NCBI GenBank assembly: GCA_905194705.1
Contig: CAJJTI010000014.1
Location: 1-22,388, forward strand
From: an uncultured Solobacterium sp.
GTDB taxonomy: Bacteria; Bacillota_I; Bacilli_A; Erysipelotrichales; Erysipelotrichaceae
Reading direction: 5' to 3'
DNA length: 22,388 bases
Shown: positions 15,407-22,341 of the stretch, piece by piece
Position numbering within the stretch: the stretch's first letter is position 1
Layout: the number at the start of each line of letters is the position of its first letter
Notes under the pieces: model-generated
What the model saw: only the letters and a program-made list of their open reading frames with translations
What the model was told of the DNA's origin: nothing
Databases searched by the model: none
Program-made: the position numbers and the translations under genes

Positions 15407-17596
15407 GTGCTAAAAGCTCTTAAATATTTAAAACCTTTTTGGAAATCTGTTATAGCAGTTATTTTCCTAATCTTTGCACAGGTTCAACTGGAACTTGCAC
15501 TACCAGACTATATGAGTAATATTGTCACAAATGGTATTCAATATAACGGTATAACAAGTCCTGTCCCTGAAGCGTTATCCACAAGTACTTATGAACATAT
15601 GGAATACTTCATGAGTGATGAAGATATTACTACTTTTGAAAACAGCTATAAACTTATCGAAAAAGGTAATTCTTCCTATACAACAAAATACCCATTAAAT
15701 GAAACAGAAAATATCTATATACTAAATGCTGACAAAGATGCTTCATTAAAAACTATTGTGGAAAAACCATTATTCATAACACAGTTATTGAATGATCCTG
15801 ACCTTTTACAAAAAATGAATATAACTAGTGCAGATGATTTATATTCTGCTATTTCTAATAGTCCTCAAATGAAGGATAGTATTCTTTCAAAAATAGATGA
15901 GTCACTAAGTGGTTACACAAGTGAAAATATTGAAGCCGCAAGTATCATGGCTTTAAAGTCAGAATATGCATTTCTTGGTGTAAGTATCAGTTCCTTACAA
16001 AATGCATATATTATGCGTGAAGGCTTCATTATGTTACTTATCTCTTTAGCAGGAAGTTTATGTGCGATGGTCGCTTCTTATTTATCAAGTAGAGCTGCTA
16101 CGGGAGCATGTAAAAATATGCGTGATGATGTTTTCAAGAAAGTTGAATCTTTCTCCAGTGATGAATTTTCACGTTTTTCCACTGCTTCGCTAATTACTCG
16201 TACTACAAATGATATTCAACAAATTCAAAATGTTATTAATATGATTCTAAGAATTGTACTATTTGCACCTATGATGGGTATTACCTCATTATTAAAAGTA
16301 TTACGTTATCCAAGCATGGCAAGTATCTTAGGTTGGATTGTGTTAATTATCCTTGTATTATTACTAACTACATTTGCTTTAGGTATGCCTAAATTTAAGA
16401 TTATCCAAAAATTAGTCGATAAATTAAATTTAGTTACCAGAGAACAATTATCGGGAATGTTAGTTATCCGTGCTTTTAATAATGAAAAAGTAGAAGAAGA
16501 ACGTTTTGATGAAGTAAATACAGATATTACCAAAGTTAATGTATTTGTTAACCGTTTAATGGGTGTTATCTCACCTACTATGGCTTTCTTGATGAGTAGT
16601 GTTTCTATCTTGATTATCTGGGTAGGAGCTAATGAAATTGATGCTGGCGTTATGCAGATTGGGGATATTATGGCTTTCTTACAATATGCGATGCATGTAC
16701 TTATGTCATTTATGATTGTAGCTATGATATTTATCATGCTGCCAAGAGCGAGTGTCAGCGCAGGACGTGTATTTGAGGTATTAAACACAGAAGTATCTAT
16801 TAAAGATCCTGAAAATCCCGTTTCTTTACCTGAAGAAAATGCAACAATTCACTTTGATCATGTTTCATTCAAATATCCTAAAGCTGAAGAATATGTTTTA
16901 GAAGATATTGATTTCTCTGTTGATCCTGGTCAAACTGTTGCCTTTATTGGTTCTACCGGTTCTGGTAAATCTACACTAATCAACTTAATTCCTCGTTTCT
17001 TTGATGTCACTGATGGTGCAATACGTATTGGAAATATTGATATACGTGATGTTAAGCAACATGATTTACGTAATCGTATCGGGTATATTCCTCAAAAAGC
17101 CACATTGTTCTCAGGAACAATCGAATCAAATCTTCGCTATGCTGATGAAAATGCAACCGACAGCACTATTGAAAATGCTTTAGAAGTATCACAAGCCAAA
17201 GAATTTGTTTCTAAAATGCCAAGCGGTATTGAAGAAGCAATTTCGCAAGGTGGTACTAATGTATCAGGTGGTCAGAAACAAAGATTATCTATTGCTAGAG
17301 CATTAGTTAAAAACGCTGATATTTATATCTTTGATGATACCTTCAGTGCTCTCGACTACCATACAGATGCTTTATTACGTGAAGCGTTAAATAAGATGGT
17401 TAAAGAAAAACATTCAACTGTATTTATTGTTGCTCAACGAATCAGTTCTATCATGCATGCAGATAAGATTATTGTCTTAGACCAAGGTAAGATTGTTGGT
17501 AATGGTACACATGCAGAATTAATGAAGTACTGCCCTGTTTATCAAGAAATCGCTTATTCTCAATTAAGCAGAAAGGAGCTAGCCGTAAATGAGTGA
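15407..17596 (+). CDS. Heterodimeric ABC exporter, degenerate-site subunit with large extracellular insert
   Basis: 729 residues. One membrane helix (about 14-34) is followed by a long hydrophilic stretch to about 205, then five helices and the ATPase domain. The stretch (SPVPEALSTSTYEH...) replaces the usual short TM1-TM2 loop and is probably outside the cell. Walker A is GSTGSGKST (515-523), the Q-loop glutamine is Gln563 and the signature VSGGQ is at 619-623. Walker B ends IYIFDD, so the catalytic Glu is Asp644. The switch histidine is Gln677 (IVAQRIS). Such changes mark the non-catalytic half of TM287/288- or BmrCD-type heterodimers. The start is GTG after AAAGGAGG. It overlaps its partner by 8 bases. 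Multidrug or lipid export is the family role; the substrate is unknown. Confidence 0.93.
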   Translation: MLKALKYLKPFWKSVIAVIFLIFAQVQLELALPDYMSNIVTNGIQYNGITSPVPEALSTSTYEHMEYFMSDEDITTFENSYKLIEKGNSSYTTKYPLNETENIYILNADKDASLKTIVEKPLFITQLLNDPDLLQKMNITSADDLYSAISNSPQMKDSILSKIDESLSGYTSENIEAASIMALKSEYAFLGVSISSLQNAYIMREGFIMLLISLAGSLCAMVASYLSSRAATGACKNMRDDVFKKVESFSSDEFSRFSTASLITRTTNDIQQIQNVINMILRIVLFAPMMGITSLLKVLRYPSMASILGWIVLIILVLLLTTFALGMPKFKIIQKLVDKLNLVTREQLSGMLVIRAFNNEKVEEERFDEVNTDITKVNVFVNRLMGVISPTMAFLMSSVSILIIWVGANEIDAGVMQIGDIMAFLQYAMHVLMSFMIVAMIFIMLPRASVSAGRVFEVLNTEVSIKDPENPVSLPEENATIHFDHVSFKYPKAEEYVLEDIDFSVDPGQTVAFIGSTGSGKSTLINLIPRFFDVTDGAIRIGNIDIRDVKQHDLRNRIGYIPQKATLFSGTIESNLRYADENATDSTIENALEVSQAKEFVSKMPSGIEEAISQGGTNVSGGQKQRLSIARALVKNADIYIFDDTFSALDYHTDALLREALNKMVKEKHSTVFIVAQRISSIMHADKIIVLDQGKIVGNGTHAELMKYCPVYQEIAYSQLSRKELAVNE

Positions 17597-19454
17597 AAGA
17601 AGACAAAACGGTCCTAGAATGGGTGGGCCTGGTAGAAGAGCTGGCATGATGCCAGGCGAAAAAGCCAAAAACTTCAAAGGCTCCGTATTAAGATTACTTG
17701 TATTTTTAAAGCCATTTGCTCCTGTACTTACAGTCATTATTATCTGTGCTATTGCTTCTACTGTTTTCAATATTATCGGTCCTAAAATCTTAGGTACAGC
17801 CACAACTACTCTAGCTGAAGGATTAGCTCTTAAATATACTGGTAACGGTGGAATTGATTTCAATAAAATAGCTGATATTCTTACAAAACTATTAATCATT
17901 TATATTTTATCTGCAGCGTTTAGTTATATTCAAAGCTGGATTATGGCAGGGGTTACTCAGAAAGTAACTTATAAATTACGTAAAGATATTTCTGAAAAGA
18001 TTAATCGTTTGCCATTAAAATATTTTGATCATCAAACACATGGTGAAGTATTATCACGTGTTACAAATGATGTAGATACTGTTTCTCAATCTTTAAACCA
18101 GTCTATTCAACAGATATTAACTTCTGTAGTAACGGTTATTGGTATCCTAATCATGATGTTTTCTATCTCATGGCAGCTTACTCTAATGGCTTTAATTGTT
18201 GTACCACTATCTGGTATCGCCGCTGCATTTGTTGTTAAGCACAGTCAAAAGTACTTCTCTCTTCAACAAAAAACATTAGGTGAAGTGAATGGTCATATCG
18301 AAGAAATGTATGGTGGTCATATTGTCATGAAAGCCTTCAATGGGGAAGATAAATCTATTGAAGAATTTGAAAAACTAAATGACAACTTATACAACTCTGC
18401 ATGGAAATCACAATTTATGAGTGGTTTAATGCAACCAATTACAAGCTTTATTGGTAATGTTGGTTATGTTGGATGTTGTGTACTTGGCGGTTATCTTGCA
18501 ATACATAATGGTTTAGCTATTGGTGATATTCAAGCATTTATTCAATATGTAAGAAACTTCAACCAGCCTATTACACAAACTGCCCAAATTATGAATGTCT
18601 TACAATCTACTGCAGCCGCTGCCGAAAGAGTATTTGAATTCTTAGATGAACCTGAAGAAAGTGCTGATCCTGTTCATCCAGTAAATATCAGAAATGAAGA
18701 TGGTTCATTAAATATCAAAGGTAATGTATCTTTTGAAAATGTATGCTTTGGTTATGAGCCTGATAAGATTGTTATCAATAATTTCAGTGCATATATGAAA
18801 GAAGGAAAACAAATCGCTATTGTTGGTCCTACTGGAGCTGGTAAAACTACTATCGTTAAGTTACTCATGCGTTTCTATGAACTAAATAGTGGTGATATAT
18901 ACATTGATGGTATTAAGACAACTAATTTAACTAGACATGATTTAAGATCATGCTTTGGTATGGTGTTACAAGATACTTGGCTTCATTCTGGAACAATTAT
19001 GGAAAATATCCGTTATGGTAAGAAAGATGCAACTGATGAAGATGTTATGAGAGCAGCAGATGCCGCTTATGTAGACCATTTCATTCGTACACTGGATGAT
19101 GGTTATAACACTGTTATCAATGAAGAATCCACTAATATTTCTCAAGGTCAAAAGCAACTACTAACTATTGCTCGTGCCTTCTTAGCTGATCCTAAAATTC
19201 TAATTCTGGATGAAGCAACATCTTCTGTAGATACTCGTACCGAAATCCTAATTCAAAGAGGTATGGAAAATCTCATGAAAGGTAGAACAAGCTTTGTTAT
19301 CGCACATAGATTATCTACAATTAAAAACGCTGATATGATTCTAGTTATGAATCATGGCGATATTGTAGAAGTAGGAACACATGATGAATTACTTGCAAAA
19401 AATGGTTTCTATGCAAATCTATACAATGCACAATTTGAAGATGTAGCTGCATAA
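17589..19454 (+). CDS. Heterodimeric ABC exporter, catalytic subunit
   Basis: 621 residues: a glycine- and arginine-rich cytoplasmic start, six membrane helices (about 40-340) and an ATPase domain. Walker A is GPTGAGKTT (413-421), the Q-loop Gln461, Walker B ILILDE with catalytic Glu542, and the switch His573 is intact (IAHRLST). The signature reads ISQGQ (517-521) instead of LSGGQ. With the partner's normal signature this gives one complete ATP site (this Walker A/B plus partner VSGGQ) and one degenerate site, the expected asymmetry. ATG 17589 overlaps the partner's stop (TGA 17594-17596); the SD AAAGGAG at 17572-17578 lies inside the partner gene, so translation is coupled. A strong terminator follows. 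Confidence 0.95.
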   Translation: MSERRQNGPRMGGPGRRAGMMPGEKAKNFKGSVLRLLVFLKPFAPVLTVIIICAIASTVFNIIGPKILGTATTTLAEGLALKYTGNGGIDFNKIADILTKLLIIYILSAAFSYIQSWIMAGVTQKVTYKLRKDISEKINRLPLKYFDHQTHGEVLSRVTNDVDTVSQSLNQSIQQILTSVVTVIGILIMMFSISWQLTLMALIVVPLSGIAAAFVVKHSQKYFSLQQKTLGEVNGHIEEMYGGHIVMKAFNGEDKSIEEFEKLNDNLYNSAWKSQFMSGLMQPITSFIGNVGYVGCCVLGGYLAIHNGLAIGDIQAFIQYVRNFNQPITQTAQIMNVLQSTAAAAERVFEFLDEPEESADPVHPVNIRNEDGSLNIKGNVSFENVCFGYEPDKIVINNFSAYMKEGKQIAIVGPTGAGKTTIVKLLMRFYELNSGDIYIDGIKTTNLTRHDLRSCFGMVLQDTWLHSGTIMENIRYGKKDATDEDVMRAADAAYVDHFIRTLDDGYNTVINEESTNISQGQKQLLTIARAFLADPKILILDEATSSVDTRTEILIQRGMENLMKGRTSFVIAHRLSTIKNADMILVMNHGDIVEVGTHDELLAKNGFYANLYNAQFEDVAA

Positions 19455-19635: not shown

Positions 19636-21048
19636 ATGATTGGAAGAATTGAAGAACTAAACCATTTATATAATCTTTATAATAGTGATTCTTTTGAATT
19701 TTTAGTCATGTATGGTAGACGAAGAATAGGTAAAACCACTATTCTTCAAGAGTTTTCAGAAAAGACAAATTCTATTTTCTTTCCTGCTCGCGAAAAAAAT
19801 GATACATTAAATTTAGAAGATTTTTCAAAAATAATTCAATATCATTTTGACAAGCAATTTTATTCATCTTTCTCAAGTTGGGAAGATGCGTTTAATTATA
19901 TAAGTTCTAAGGCTCACGATAAAATCGCAATTATTATAGATGAATTTCCTTACATCATAGAAGAGAATCCATCTGTGAAATCAATTCTTCAACACGTTAT
20001 TGATCATAGTTGGAAACAAAAAAATATCTTTCTAATCCTTTGTGGCTCTTCTGTAAGCATCATGGAAAATGATGTAATGGGAAGAAAGAGCCCATTACAT
20101 GATAGACAAACTTCAACATTAGAAATCAAGCCTTTTGATTATTATGAAAGTAGCGATTTTTTTCCTGAATACAATAATATAAATAAAATATTAGCATATG
20201 GAATACTTGGTGGGGTCCCTAGATATTTAGAAGCTTTTGATTCCAGCAAAACGATCGAACAGAATATTGCGACAAGAATCATTCAAAATGGTTCCTATCT
20301 TTACGAAGAACCTATGAATCTTTTAAAAGCGGAAGTCCGTGAAACCAATATTTATAACAGTATCTTATCTGCTATTGCCAGCGGCAAAAACAAAATGATT
20401 GATATTGCGAACTTTATTCATGAAGATCGAACAAAAGTAGCAAAATATCTCAACACTTTACAAATATTAAGATTAATCGAAAAACGTGTGCCATGTGGAG
20501 AACCTGAAACAAGCAAAAAATCAATTTATGTAATCAAAGATAATTTCTTTAAATTCTGGTTCAGATATGAGTTCACCAATAATGTTTATTATTCTATTCT
20601 TGGACAATCTGAAGCATCAAAGGAAATCATGAACGATATCAGTAATTTTATGGGAGATATTTTTGAAGATATTTGTAAAGAATATTTAATTCGTTTAGCT
20701 CGATTAAGAAAACTTCCTTTTATTCCATATCATATTGGTAAATGGTGGGGAAATAATCCTGTTCTTAAAGCACAAGATGACGTCGATTTATTAGCAATTG
20801 ATAAAACTGGTACTAAAGCTATATTTGTTGAATGTAAATTCACTTCTAAGCTAGTGCCATATGAAGAATATGTAGATTTATTGACAGCAACAAAAGCATT
20901 TCCAAATATTAAAGAAAAACATTTATATTTCATTAGCAAATCAGGATATACAAAACCAGTAATAAAACAAGCAGAAATTGATGGTGCGATACTTTTAACC
21001 ATCGATGATTTATTTGATTTGAAGCGTTATAATGATTTTGACCTATAA
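19636..21048 (+). CDS. ATPase_2 / DUF234 protein with nuclease-like C-terminus
   Basis: 470 residues. The P-loop domain (about 1-230) has MIGRIEELNHL, Walker A GRRRIGKT (27-34), Walker B IAIIIDEFPYI (Asp102, Glu103) and a sensor strand FLILCGSSVSIME: the archaeal-type ATPase_2 pattern. A winged-helix-like part follows (about 236-285, KMIDIANFIHEDRTKVAKYLNTLQIL). The DUF234 C-terminus holds D-V-D-L-L-A-I-D (384 region) and FVECKF (Glu399-x-Lys401), the spacing of a PD-(D/E)XK nuclease core. These genes are common and often multi-copy in anaerobes; their role is unsettled (defence or mobile-element functions have been suggested). The SD AGGAG precedes ATG 19636. Its stop overlaps the P1 helix of the riboswitch-like element. 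Confidence 0.85.
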   Translation: MIGRIEELNHLYNLYNSDSFEFLVMYGRRRIGKTTILQEFSEKTNSIFFPAREKNDTLNLEDFSKIIQYHFDKQFYSSFSSWEDAFNYISSKAHDKIAIIIDEFPYIIEENPSVKSILQHVIDHSWKQKNIFLILCGSSVSIMENDVMGRKSPLHDRQTSTLEIKPFDYYESSDFFPEYNNINKILAYGILGGVPRYLEAFDSSKTIEQNIATRIIQNGSYLYEEPMNLLKAEVRETNIYNSILSAIASGKNKMIDIANFIHEDRTKVAKYLNTLQILRLIEKRVPCGEPETSKKSIYVIKDNFFKFWFRYEFTNNVYYSILGQSEASKEIMNDISNFMGDIFEDICKEYLIRLARLRKLPFIPYHIGKWWGNNPVLKAQDDVDLLAIDKTGTKAIFVECKFTSKLVPYEEYVDLLTATKAFPNIKEKHLYFISKSGYTKPVIKQAEIDGAILLTIDDLFDLKRYNDFDL

Positions 21049-21169
21049 AGAGTGTGCTAGAGACTGGCTCAATGACCACACAGCAACCTGCAAAAGTAAG
21101 GTGCTAAAGCCAGGAAGATGGGAACTGTTATATATTTAATATGATCCTATCTTTCCGATAGGATTTTTT
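21042..21169 (+). promoter_or_regulatory. S-box-like (SAM-I clan) riboswitch without P4, with terminator platform
   Basis: P1 CCUAU/AUGGG (21042-21046 with 21118-21122). P2a GUGUG/CACAC (21052-21056 with 21077-21081). P2b GAG/CUC closes the loop ACUGG (21060-21070), followed by AAUGA as in the SAM-I kink-turn. Then AGCAACC, a short P3 (21086-21091 with 21096-21102, loop AAAA) and GGUGCUAAA. Loop CUGG (21064-21067) pairs with CCAG (21110-21113) as the pseudoknot. Only four bases then separate this from P1, so no P4 hairpin exists. A terminator follows (21144-21151 with 21157-21164, T-run). GAUGGG (21117-21122) can instead pair with CCUAUC (21146-21151) as an antiterminator. Ligand binding would favour P1 and termination. 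The ligand, presumably SAM, is inferred. Confidence 0.75.
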
Positions 21170-21209
21170 CATTCTTTGTAGCGTCTATAATCGTTAGGAG
21201 GACTATAAA

Positions 21210-21560
21210 ATGAACACGATTAAAGAAGCGACAACATTATACGCAAAAGATTATTCTACTATTTGGTATTCTACTCCAAATGAATTACGCCATGAATTTT
21301 ATAAAGAAATCAAAGCATTAGGCGTTAGATTTTACACTGGCAAAGAAGTTAATGAAGAAGATATTGGATGCTTCACGTCTGTAGATCCTGATTTAACAAC
21401 TGGATATATATCAATAAAATGCTGGAGTGAATTATTAAATAATGCAGATCTTGCAGATATAAGCGGAAACATAATCCCCGTAATTCTGCTAGATTATGCA
21501 AAACTTAAAAACGGTGAAGATCCTGTAATTTTCGATAATTTAAAACATGCTAAAATATGA
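21210..21560 (+). CDS. Unknown 116-residue protein under riboswitch-like control
   Basis: Starts MNTIKEATTLYAKDYSTIWYSTPNELRHEFYKEIKALGVRFYTGKEV, with the strong SD AGGAGG seven bases before the ATG. The protein is soluble and acidic, with no signal peptide or membrane helix; it looks like a small alpha/beta fold. The middle has EDIGCFTSVDPDLTTGYISIKCWSELL and the end VILLDYAKLKNGEDPVIFDNL. I do not recognise a family and see no catalytic motif. It is the only gene between the S-box-like switch at 21042-21169 and the terminator at 21621, so it is the probable regulated target, read when the ligand is scarce. A role in methionine/SAM economy or in mobile-element biology are both guesses. Confidence 0.7.
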   Translation: MNTIKEATTLYAKDYSTIWYSTPNELRHEFYKEIKALGVRFYTGKEVNEEDIGCFTSVDPDLTTGYISIKCWSELLNNADLADISGNIIPVILLDYAKLKNGEDPVIFDNLKHAKI

Positions 21561-22095: not shown

Positions 22096-22158
22096 TTTTA
22101 ACTTTCTGAAACATGTCTTTTTATTAACTCGATTAATTAGTATAAGATTTCTTGTTAA

Positions 22159-22245
22159 TCACAGATAAATCAGCTCATGGCTGGCGGCGGCGTGGCACTG
22201 ATCGGCACGACTCTGGTGCCGCTGCTTTCTGGACTTTTTGGTTAA
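22159..22245 (+). pseudogene. 3' fragment of a Maff2-family mobile-element gene
   Basis: After an in-frame TAA (22156-22158) the frame reads SQINQLMAGGGVALIGTTLVPLLSGLFG and stops at 22243-22245. This matches the conserved C-terminus (KQLMAGGG-x-x-LIG-x-x-LVPLLSGLF) of Maff2 proteins, small two-helix membrane proteins of Tn1549/CTn-type conjugative elements. The expected N-terminal helix is missing, and the DNA turns abruptly from AT-rich to GC-rich at about 22170. It is therefore a truncated gene at a recombination junction. From 22096 to about 22165 I see no gene. Confidence 0.7.
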
Positions 22246-22277
22246 ACAGAAAGCATACGAGGTTGGAATTCTGATGA

Positions 22278-22301
22278 GGGCGGCGGTGAGCCGCCCTTTT
22301 T
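22278..22301 (+). terminator. GC-rich intrinsic terminator after the Maff2 fragment
   Basis: GGGCGGC/GCCGCCC (22278-22284 with 22290-22296), loop GGTGA, then TTTTT. Its base composition differs sharply from all other terminators in the window, in keeping with a foreign element. Confidence 0.85.
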
Positions 22302-22303
22302 AC

Positions 22304-22341
22304 ATAGCCAGGTTTCTGATTGGGATTGGAGACCTGGCTAT
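22304..22341 (+). promoter_or_regulatory. Stem-loop covering the SD of the last gene
   Basis: ATAGCCAGGTTTC (22304-22316) and GAGACCTGGCTAT (22329-22341) pair over 13 bp with one wobble, around a 12-base loop. The SD GGAGA (22328-22332) lies mostly in the 3' arm, and the arm ends immediately before ATG 22342, so the stem would hide the ribosome site. Confidence 0.5.

What the first reader, a model, noticed from the sequence alone, without database searches (positions are those of the whole stretch)
21042..21169. S-box-like riboswitch lacking the P4 helix
The element has the SAM-I core: P1, a kink-turn P2 with loop ACUGG, a short P3, GGUGCUAAA and a 4-bp pseudoknot CUGG/CCAG. Only four bases lie between the pseudoknot strand and P1, so the normal P4 hairpin is absent. 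The terminator and antiterminator are complete and compete for GAUGGG, which argues for function rather than decay. A compact SAM-I variant in a low-GC Firmicute would be unusual.
Basis: partly seen in the sequence, partly recalled or inferred. Interest (0 to 1): 0.75.

Follow-up and report, generated by a model that had tools for sequence, protein, structure and literature searches.

The report
SAM switch missing one arm
This looks like a genuine RNA sensor for the cell's methyl donor (S-adenosylmethionine) that naturally lacks one of the usual four arms; it belongs to a widespread compact form that also occurs in gut phages, often in front of one family of small proteins of unknown function.

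Summary
The element is real. Window 21040-21124 matches Rfam SAM (RF00162, 50.4 bits, cut-off 44.4) with P4 deleted: four bases (GAAG) separate pseudoknot strand CCAG from P1. It is not one damaged copy. Of 140 SAM-I elements read (window, 137 of its family, 2 of its order), 119 lack P4, nearly all with a 12-13-nt spacer; 18 have it; 3 are irregular. In 80 aligned P4-less RNAs the pseudoknot pairs in 319 of 320 cells, all four pairs changing on both sides; 10 of 13 SAM-pocket positions are invariant. P4-less leaders precede metK 67 times, so SAM is the expected ligand. Terminator and antiterminator are present.

Loci gathered by protein similarity carry a P4-less SAM-I element just upstream in 20 of 20 viral contigs (12 already known from the switch) and 19 of 21 bacterial loci. 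Some phage copies adjoin DNA methyltransferases. No listing of ten paper searches pointed to either feature. Ligand binding and protein function are untested.

The parts
21028..21033 (+). TATAAT, a possible -10 box inside the end of the upstream ORF, 6 nt before the aptamer
   Evidence: Direct reading; at least 5/6 TATAAT just upstream of P1 in 85 of 113 P4-less relatives (47.9 expected from mononucleotide shuffles) and 21 of 26 viral ones (9.4 expected). Against: one search finds no full sigma-70 promoter here (0 found, mean 1.7 in shuffles).
21040..21124 (+). SAM-I aptamer lacking P4
   Evidence: RF00162 50.4 bits, cut-off 44.4, model 1-108 with P4 deleted.
21042..21046 (+). P1 5' strand CCUAU; overlaps the stop codon (TAA 21046-21048) of the upstream ATPase ORF
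   Evidence: P1 pairs covary in relatives.
21052..21081 (+). P2 arm with kink-turn; P2b GAG/CUC closes the loop ACUGG
   Evidence: the GA of the kink-turn 3' strand is kept in 79 of 80 relatives at each of the two positions.
21064..21067 (+). pseudoknot 5' strand CUGG
   Evidence: helix 5, 99.7% of cells paired, all 4 pairs with changes on both sides.
21082..21105 (+). P3 with the SAM-pocket bases (GCAACC / GGUGC)
21110..21113 (+). pseudoknot 3' strand CCAG
21114..21117 (+). GAAG, the whole stretch where P4 would stand
   Evidence: from GGUGC/G to P1 the spacing is 12-13 nt in 110 of 140 elements read.
21118..21122 (+). P1 3' strand AUGGG; within the stretch that forms the antiterminator
21143..21170 (+). 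intrinsic terminator: 9-bp stem, then a U tract
21196..21201 (+). AGGAGG ribosome-binding site
   Evidence: Direct reading (one search prints the sequence).
21210..21560 (+). 116-aa gene controlled by the switch; family also found in Clostridia and phages
   Evidence: no Pfam family at E 0.001, no NCBIfam or PADLOC family at E 1; AlphaFold2 model pLDDT 82.1, no close solved fold found.

Best explanation
A SAM-I-family transcriptional OFF switch in a compact form without P4. Inferred sequence of events: RNA polymerase starts just upstream of P1. When SAM is plentiful it binds between P1 and P3, holds P1 closed, and leaves CCUAUC free to form the terminator, so the 116-aa gene is off. When SAM is scarce, GAUGGG leaves P1 and pairs with CCUAUC (antiterminator), so the gene is read. 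The pseudoknot between the P2b loop and CCAG, normally anchored next to P4, is held by the short GAAG linker to P1 alone. Shown: the architecture, covariation, conserved pocket, terminator and antiterminator, the SAM-regulon genes behind many relatives, and the link to one protein family. Inferred: SAM binding, direction of control, and the role of the protein (made when SAM runs low).
For: RF00162 hit with P4 deleted. P4-less homologues with bimodal spacing: 12-13 nt against 22-29 nt in 16 of 18 with P4. Covariation: 86.6% of cells paired against 73.2% shuffled; pseudoknot 319 of 320 cells. Pocket: of the 13 SAM-I residues listed as near SAM in PMC6890682 (passage), the positions I aligned to A6, U7, G11, A12, C44, A45, C47, U57, G58 and A87 are invariant in 80 P4-less RNAs, A46 in 76 of 80; C59 is C (50) or G (30), swapping with its P3 partner; C8 varies (C in 25) (alignment to that numbering is from recall). 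metK follows 67 P4-less elements (named by sequence, HPDK motif in 80 of the 81 genes of the cluster, no family search). metF, hom and metY (named by sequence) follow P4-less elements in Clostridia, the last two in tandem with a P4-bearing one. Terminators: family set 96 of 113 (6.9 expected in dinucleotide shuffles), class 41 of 41 (4.1), Clostridia 7 of 9 (0.8), viral 26 of 26 (2.2). Antiterminator among those with a terminator: 66 of 96, 39 of 41, 6 of 7, 25 of 26 (expected 34.4, 16.8, 2.5, 10.0).
Against: No binding or expression data. A generic fold does not recover the aptamer. The antiterminator measure is crude: only about twofold over the dinucleotide control in the family set, and not enriched at all in the P4-bearing elements (5 of 15, 8.3 expected). 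No complete sigma-70 promoter is seen in the window. In the window P1 has only five canonical or wobble pairs, and pocket position C8 is A.
Confidence: 0.87

Rival explanations
1. A single SAM-I riboswitch that has lost P4 by decay and no longer works.
For: None beyond the absent helix; the score is modest for SAM-I (50.4 bits).
Against: 119 of 140 elements read lack P4, nearly all with the same spacing, and pseudoknot, pocket and terminator are kept.
Confidence: 0.02
2. A P4-less member of SAM-IV or SAM-I/IV rather than SAM-I.
For: SAM-IV also lacks P4 (PMC6890682, passages). One relative (L089) passes the SAM-I/IV cut-off, 41.6 against 41.1 bits, where RF00162 gives 42.5, under its own cut-off.
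Against: The only SAM-clan family listed for the window is RF00162. The interrupted P2 with kink-turn bases and PK-1 are present, which SAM-I/IV lacks. A terminator follows P1 after a linker that differs between relatives, not a constant P5.
Confidence: 0.04
3. The scaffold binds a related ligand (SAH, methylthioadenosine or another SAM derivative) instead of SAM, at least in the copies before small orphan genes.
For: Many genes behind the non-metK elements are not known methionine genes.
Against: The two P1 A-U pairs that face the sulfonium in SAM-I (recalled) are invariant in 80 of 80, and orphan-type and metK-type leaders share the invariant pocket positions.
Confidence: 0.07
4. A functional SAM-I switch in which an unrecognised helix outside P1 replaces P4.
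For: Not excluded by tertiary data.
Against: Linker and terminator differ between relatives while the 12-13-nt spacing and the 4-bp pseudoknot stay. The 80-sequence consensus fold finds no further conserved helix, but that alignment ends at P1.
Confidence: 0.05

Closest known systems
SAM-I (S-box) riboswitch, RF00162
   Same: P1, interrupted P2 with kink-turn, P3, PK-1, most pocket bases, transcription-terminator platform, metK regulation
   Different: P4 is absent: 12-13 nt from GGUGC/G to P1 against 22-29 nt in 16 of 18 P4-bearing relatives
SAM-IV riboswitch, RF00634
   Same: Also lacks P4 and has PK-1 (PMC6890682, passages)
   Different: SAM-IV has P5 with PK-2 and a four-nucleotide turn; here no SAM-IV match is listed and I saw no P5
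SAM-I/IV riboswitch, RF01725
   Same: Same ligand core; one relative (L089) narrowly passes its cut-off
   Different: SAM-I/IV lacks PK-1 and the split P2 and has P4; here PK-1 and split P2 are kept and P4 is missing
Phage-encoded riboswitches (a paper on an OM43 methylophage uses the term, PMC9004378: only search listing and start of abstract seen)
   Same: A metabolite switch in a phage genome
   Different: Here a SAM-I form in front of a small unnamed protein family, also on bacterial chromosomes

Membership tests
SAM-I (S-box), RF00162 | Score above the curated cut-off | tested here: met
   50.4 bits against 44.4
SAM-I (S-box), RF00162 | P1, P2 with kink-turn, P3 and PK-1 with conserved pocket bases | tested here: met
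   pocket position C8 is A in the window
SAM-I (S-box), RF00162 | P4 hairpin between PK-1 strand and P1 (part of the consensus; PMC7657543, passages, reports covarying pairs extending it) | tested here: not met
   Only GAAG lies there. Hence filed as a variant of SAM-I, not as a standard member
SAM-I (S-box), RF00162 | Selective SAM binding | not testable with these tools
   No binding data
SAM-I (S-box), RF00162 | Regulates SAM or methionine genes | tested here: inconclusive
   True for many P4-less relatives (metK 67; metF, hom, metY); the window gene has no known function
SAM-IV, RF00634 | P5 hairpin 3' of P1 with PK-2, and a match to the family model | tested here: inconclusive
   Not listed, but one search left out one overlapping same-clan match; PK-2 was not tested past P1
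SAM-I/IV, RF01725 | Uninterrupted P2, no PK-1, P4 present | tested here: not met
   Window has split P2 and PK-1 and no P4

The most novel reading that the evidence does not exclude
A mobile SAM-sensing cassette: a minimal, P4-less SAM-I switch plus one small protein, carried by gut phages (in some beside their DNA methyltransferase genes) and by bacterial chromosomes, which makes the protein when SAM runs out. It might protect, signal or compensate when methylation is starved during infection or by defence and counter-defence systems that destroy SAM.
Probability: 0.35. Interest if true: 0.87.

Novelty: new variant of a known kind. Interest (0 to 1): 0.72.

Why it matters
It gives a natural, evolutionarily tested minimal SAM-I aptamer (81-100 nt in 113 elements), which asks directly what P4 contributes to pseudoknot formation and SAM affinity. 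It also exposes a tight link between a riboswitch and an unnamed protein family shared by phages and gut Firmicutes, so the function of that family can be pursued through the signal that controls it. And it shows that the SAM-I cut-off undercounts this form: in its family 201 of 272 genomes had a match but only 138 one over the cut-off.

Tried and rejected

Rows dropped or selected: of the elements listed about 15 rows and all unlisted ones were not read, so the 140 lean to better scores. Two of the 140 (L083, L087, both with P4) come from the order, outside the family list. Five fetched loci (L099, L101, L113, L116, L120) were left out of the 140; the first two have P4, the other three do not (for L120 the script mispaired P1; read by eye). 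The script's spacing gave 113 P4-less; six more (L094, L111, L112, L143, L220, L243) were reassigned by eye because the model over-extended, giving 119; L182, L218, L219 are irregular; for L087 the script gave 8, one search gave 26. The class and Clostridia loci read were top scorers of the P4-less model and therefore enriched for it. In one search five of 41 elements could not be measured by script (AGUGC instead of GGUGC) and were read by eye.

Full report
WHAT IS THERE. Window 21040-21124 is the only Rfam match above cut-off in the window: RF00162 (SAM), 50.4 bits against 44.4, full model with P4 deleted. Four bases, GAAG, separate pseudoknot strand CCAG from P1. A terminator stands at 21143-21165 with a U tract (1 found, mean 0.0 in shuffles), and the P1 3' strand with its neighbours can pair over 10 bp with the terminator's 5' arm. 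The 5' strand of P1 overlaps the stop codon of an upstream ATPase gene; a TATAAT lies six bases before the aptamer, but no full promoter was found. Behind the terminator are AGGAGG and a 116-aa gene.

ORGANISM. No genome is held for the window. The ABC transporter at 17589-19454 is 79-80% identical (best segment) to proteins of two Solobacterium metagenome bins (L001, L002), so the host is a Solobacterium-like Erysipelotrichaceae relative.

HOMOLOGUES LACK P4. A search of 272 genomes of the family of G004 (NK3D112, L004) with RF00162 gave matches in 201, over the cut-off in 138. I read 140 elements: the window, 137 of the family and two of the order (selection told under Tried and rejected). 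The distance from GGUGC/G to P1 is bimodal: 12-13 nt in 110 elements and 9 or 14 nt in three more; 22-29 nt in 16 of the 18 that have P4. After correcting six over-extended matches by eye, 119 lack P4, 18 have it and 3 are irregular. Some genomes carry both forms (G201: L108 with P4, L211 without; G264: the two in tandem).

COVARIATION. In 80 non-redundant P4-less RNAs (window included) the proposed structure has 86.6% paired cells against 73.2% when partners are shuffled and 34-41% when slid. The pseudoknot pairs in 319 of 320 cells, all four of its pairs changing on both sides: CUGG/CCAG in the window, CAAG/CUUG, CUAG/CUAG, UCAG/CUGA and others. In 40 distinct sequences of the wider Bacilli set one P3 pair is C-G in 35 and U-A in five. 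Ten of 13 pocket positions are invariant in the 80; A46 is kept in 76, C59 swaps with its partner, C8 varies. Two subtypes differ by that swapped P3 pair (GCAACC/GGUGC or CCAACC/GGUGG), 50 against 30 sequences.

FUNCTION OF THE SWITCH. Of 136 elements with a readable downstream gene, 81 precede metK (named by sequence; HPDK motif in 80 of 81), and 67 of these lack P4. Twenty precede a membrane protein; the one tested is an ECF transporter S component (PF07155). Outside the family six P4-less leaders precede priA, judged by sequence. In Clostridia, P4-less elements precede metK, metF, hom and metY, the last two in tandem with a P4-bearing element (named by sequence). Terminators follow in 96 of 113 family, 41 of 41 Bacilli-class, 7 of 9 Clostridial and 26 of 26 viral elements, against 6.9, 4.1, 0.8 and 2.2 in dinucleotide-preserving shuffles. 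Antiterminator pairing is found in 66 of 96, 39 of 41, 6 of 7 and 25 of 26, against 34.4, 16.8, 2.5 and 10.0; in 17 P4-bearing elements terminators are as common (15, 1.4 expected) but my antiterminator measure is not enriched (5 of 15, 8.3 expected), so that measure is crude. The viral 26 hold 20 distinct aptamers. Together these fit SAM-repressed transcription attenuation.

SPREAD. A model of the P4-less form (R1) found strong matches in other Bacilli and in Clostridia. Of 41 top-scoring class-level elements, 36 measure 12 nt and five, with a compensated P3 change, read the same by eye. Of 23 top-scoring Clostridial elements printed, 19 lack P4 by eye. Two elements in another Bacilli genome (L327) have the canonical core with P4 deleted, which suggests that P4 was lost more than once. 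Weak R1 hits checked usually have P4.

THE CONTROLLED GENE. The window protein has 13 related clusters in 5.8 billion proteins and no named family. In 266 family genomes its profile matched once (E 7.7e-5), and that match (G240) sits directly behind a P4-less SAM-I element close to the window's in sequence, the pseudoknot being the main difference. Further steps joined it to proteins in Ruminococcus and other Clostridia and to Ruminococcus phage NatCom_28274, where R1 scores 91.1 bits just upstream of the gene. Profile comparison of the window family with the two phage families gives 97.2% and 97.3% probability over nearly the whole length (E 4e-11 and 1.9e-11); sequence identity is only about 20%.

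RECIPROCAL TEST. Loci were gathered by protein similarity. In IMG/VR 20 were found, and 20 of 20 have a P4-less SAM-I element upstream on the same strand, ending 72-93 nt before the match. This is not fully independent: the query proteins came mostly from contigs first found through the switch, and 12 of the 20 contigs had already come up in the switch pattern scan; the eight new ones (L393-L397, L405, L409, L410, some of them near-identical) all have it. In 200 genomes of a Clostridial family 23 matches were found in 17 genomes; two were second domains of the same gene; of the other 21, 19 have the element and two, both in G1027, have none even without filters. Two of the 19 lie in G763, the centre of the search, where the element was already known. 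The pattern scan gave 25 viral contigs, all confirmed by R1; with the named phage, 19 of 26 downstream genes match the family profile (whose seed includes some of them). RF00162 itself passes its cut-off in 18 of 18 viral loci given to it.

PHAGE NEIGHBOURHOOD. The phage NatCom_28274 record has a DNA methyltransferase annotated two genes from this gene. In L391 the gene is followed, convergently, by a C5 DNA methylase (PF00145) and an N6/N4 methylase (PF01555); in L370 a C5 methylase lies just behind a different small gene with the same kind of leader. Motif scanning suggests a C5 enzyme beside the gene in 8 of 20 protein-found viral loci, all found with the same query alignment (A10); some of the others are too short to tell, and the five loci found with the second alignment (L406-L410) show none. 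Other neighbours in viral contigs are an integrase and a sliding clamp. I saw no phage genes around the element in the window's ORF list, by eye.

STRUCTURE OF THE PROTEIN. AlphaFold2 gives a small alpha/beta fold, pLDDT 82.1. No convincing match was found.

LITERATURE. Ten full-text searches of a library that lacks most subscription papers gave no listing that points to P4-less SAM-I or to phage-borne SAM-I; apart from passages in six papers I read only listings. PMC6890682 (passages) states that SAM-IV lacks P4 and that SAM-I/IV lacks PK-1 and has P4. PMC7657543 (passages) reports extra covarying pairs extending P4 in the SAM-I seed. PMC3651934 (one passage) places the acceptor of the P2b loop in helix P4. 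PMC2864571 (passages) describes the SAM-I/IV variants as lacking the internal loop in P2. In PMC2258182 (12 of 25 places shown, and one more passage) and PMC3764141 (four passages) I saw nothing on a missing P4 in SAM-I. The original SAM-IV paper is not held.

VERDICT. A SAM-I-family switch of a compact, P4-less form that is common in this lineage and shared with gut phages. Filed as a new variant of a known kind. SAM binding, the direction of control and the role of the protein remain to be tested.

Noticed in passing
window 19636-21048: The ATPase gene upstream (PF01637, PF03008) matches the candidate anti-phage defence family PDC-S27 of PADLOC, E 7.2e-56.
   Followed up: no
L294, L296, L297, L305, L307, L308 (uncultured Bacilli): P4-less SAM-I leaders stand directly before priA (recognised by sequence), an unexpected target; in some Bacilli priA is followed by def, fmt and rRNA methyltransferase genes (recalled).
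   Followed up: no
L346, L349, L109/L163: A P4-less and a P4-bearing SAM-I aptamer in tandem before one gene.
   Followed up: no
L370 13121-13208 and downstream: In a viral contig a P4-less SAM-I leader precedes a different small protein and then a C5 DNA methyltransferase.
   Followed up: partly
L286, L289, L293, L298, L284, L285, L275, L202, L221, L159, L170: Other small orphan proteins behind P4-less SAM-I leaders look alike in layout to the window protein, but the family profile does not match them.
   Followed up: partly
L327 1033-1119 and 2235-2323: Two SAM-I aptamers with canonical core and P4 deleted in another Bacilli genome: apparently separate losses of P4.
   Followed up: no
G1027 (L414, L429): Two copies of the small-protein gene without any SAM-I element found nearby; the sequence just upstream differs from the other loci.
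   Followed up: partly
L419, L425: Two P4-less SAM-I elements within one 3.3-kb stretch, as if the cassette duplicated.
   Followed up: no
window 22170-22310: A visibly G+C-rich stretch near the contig end, unlike the rest (seen; the profile stops at 22149).
   Followed up: no
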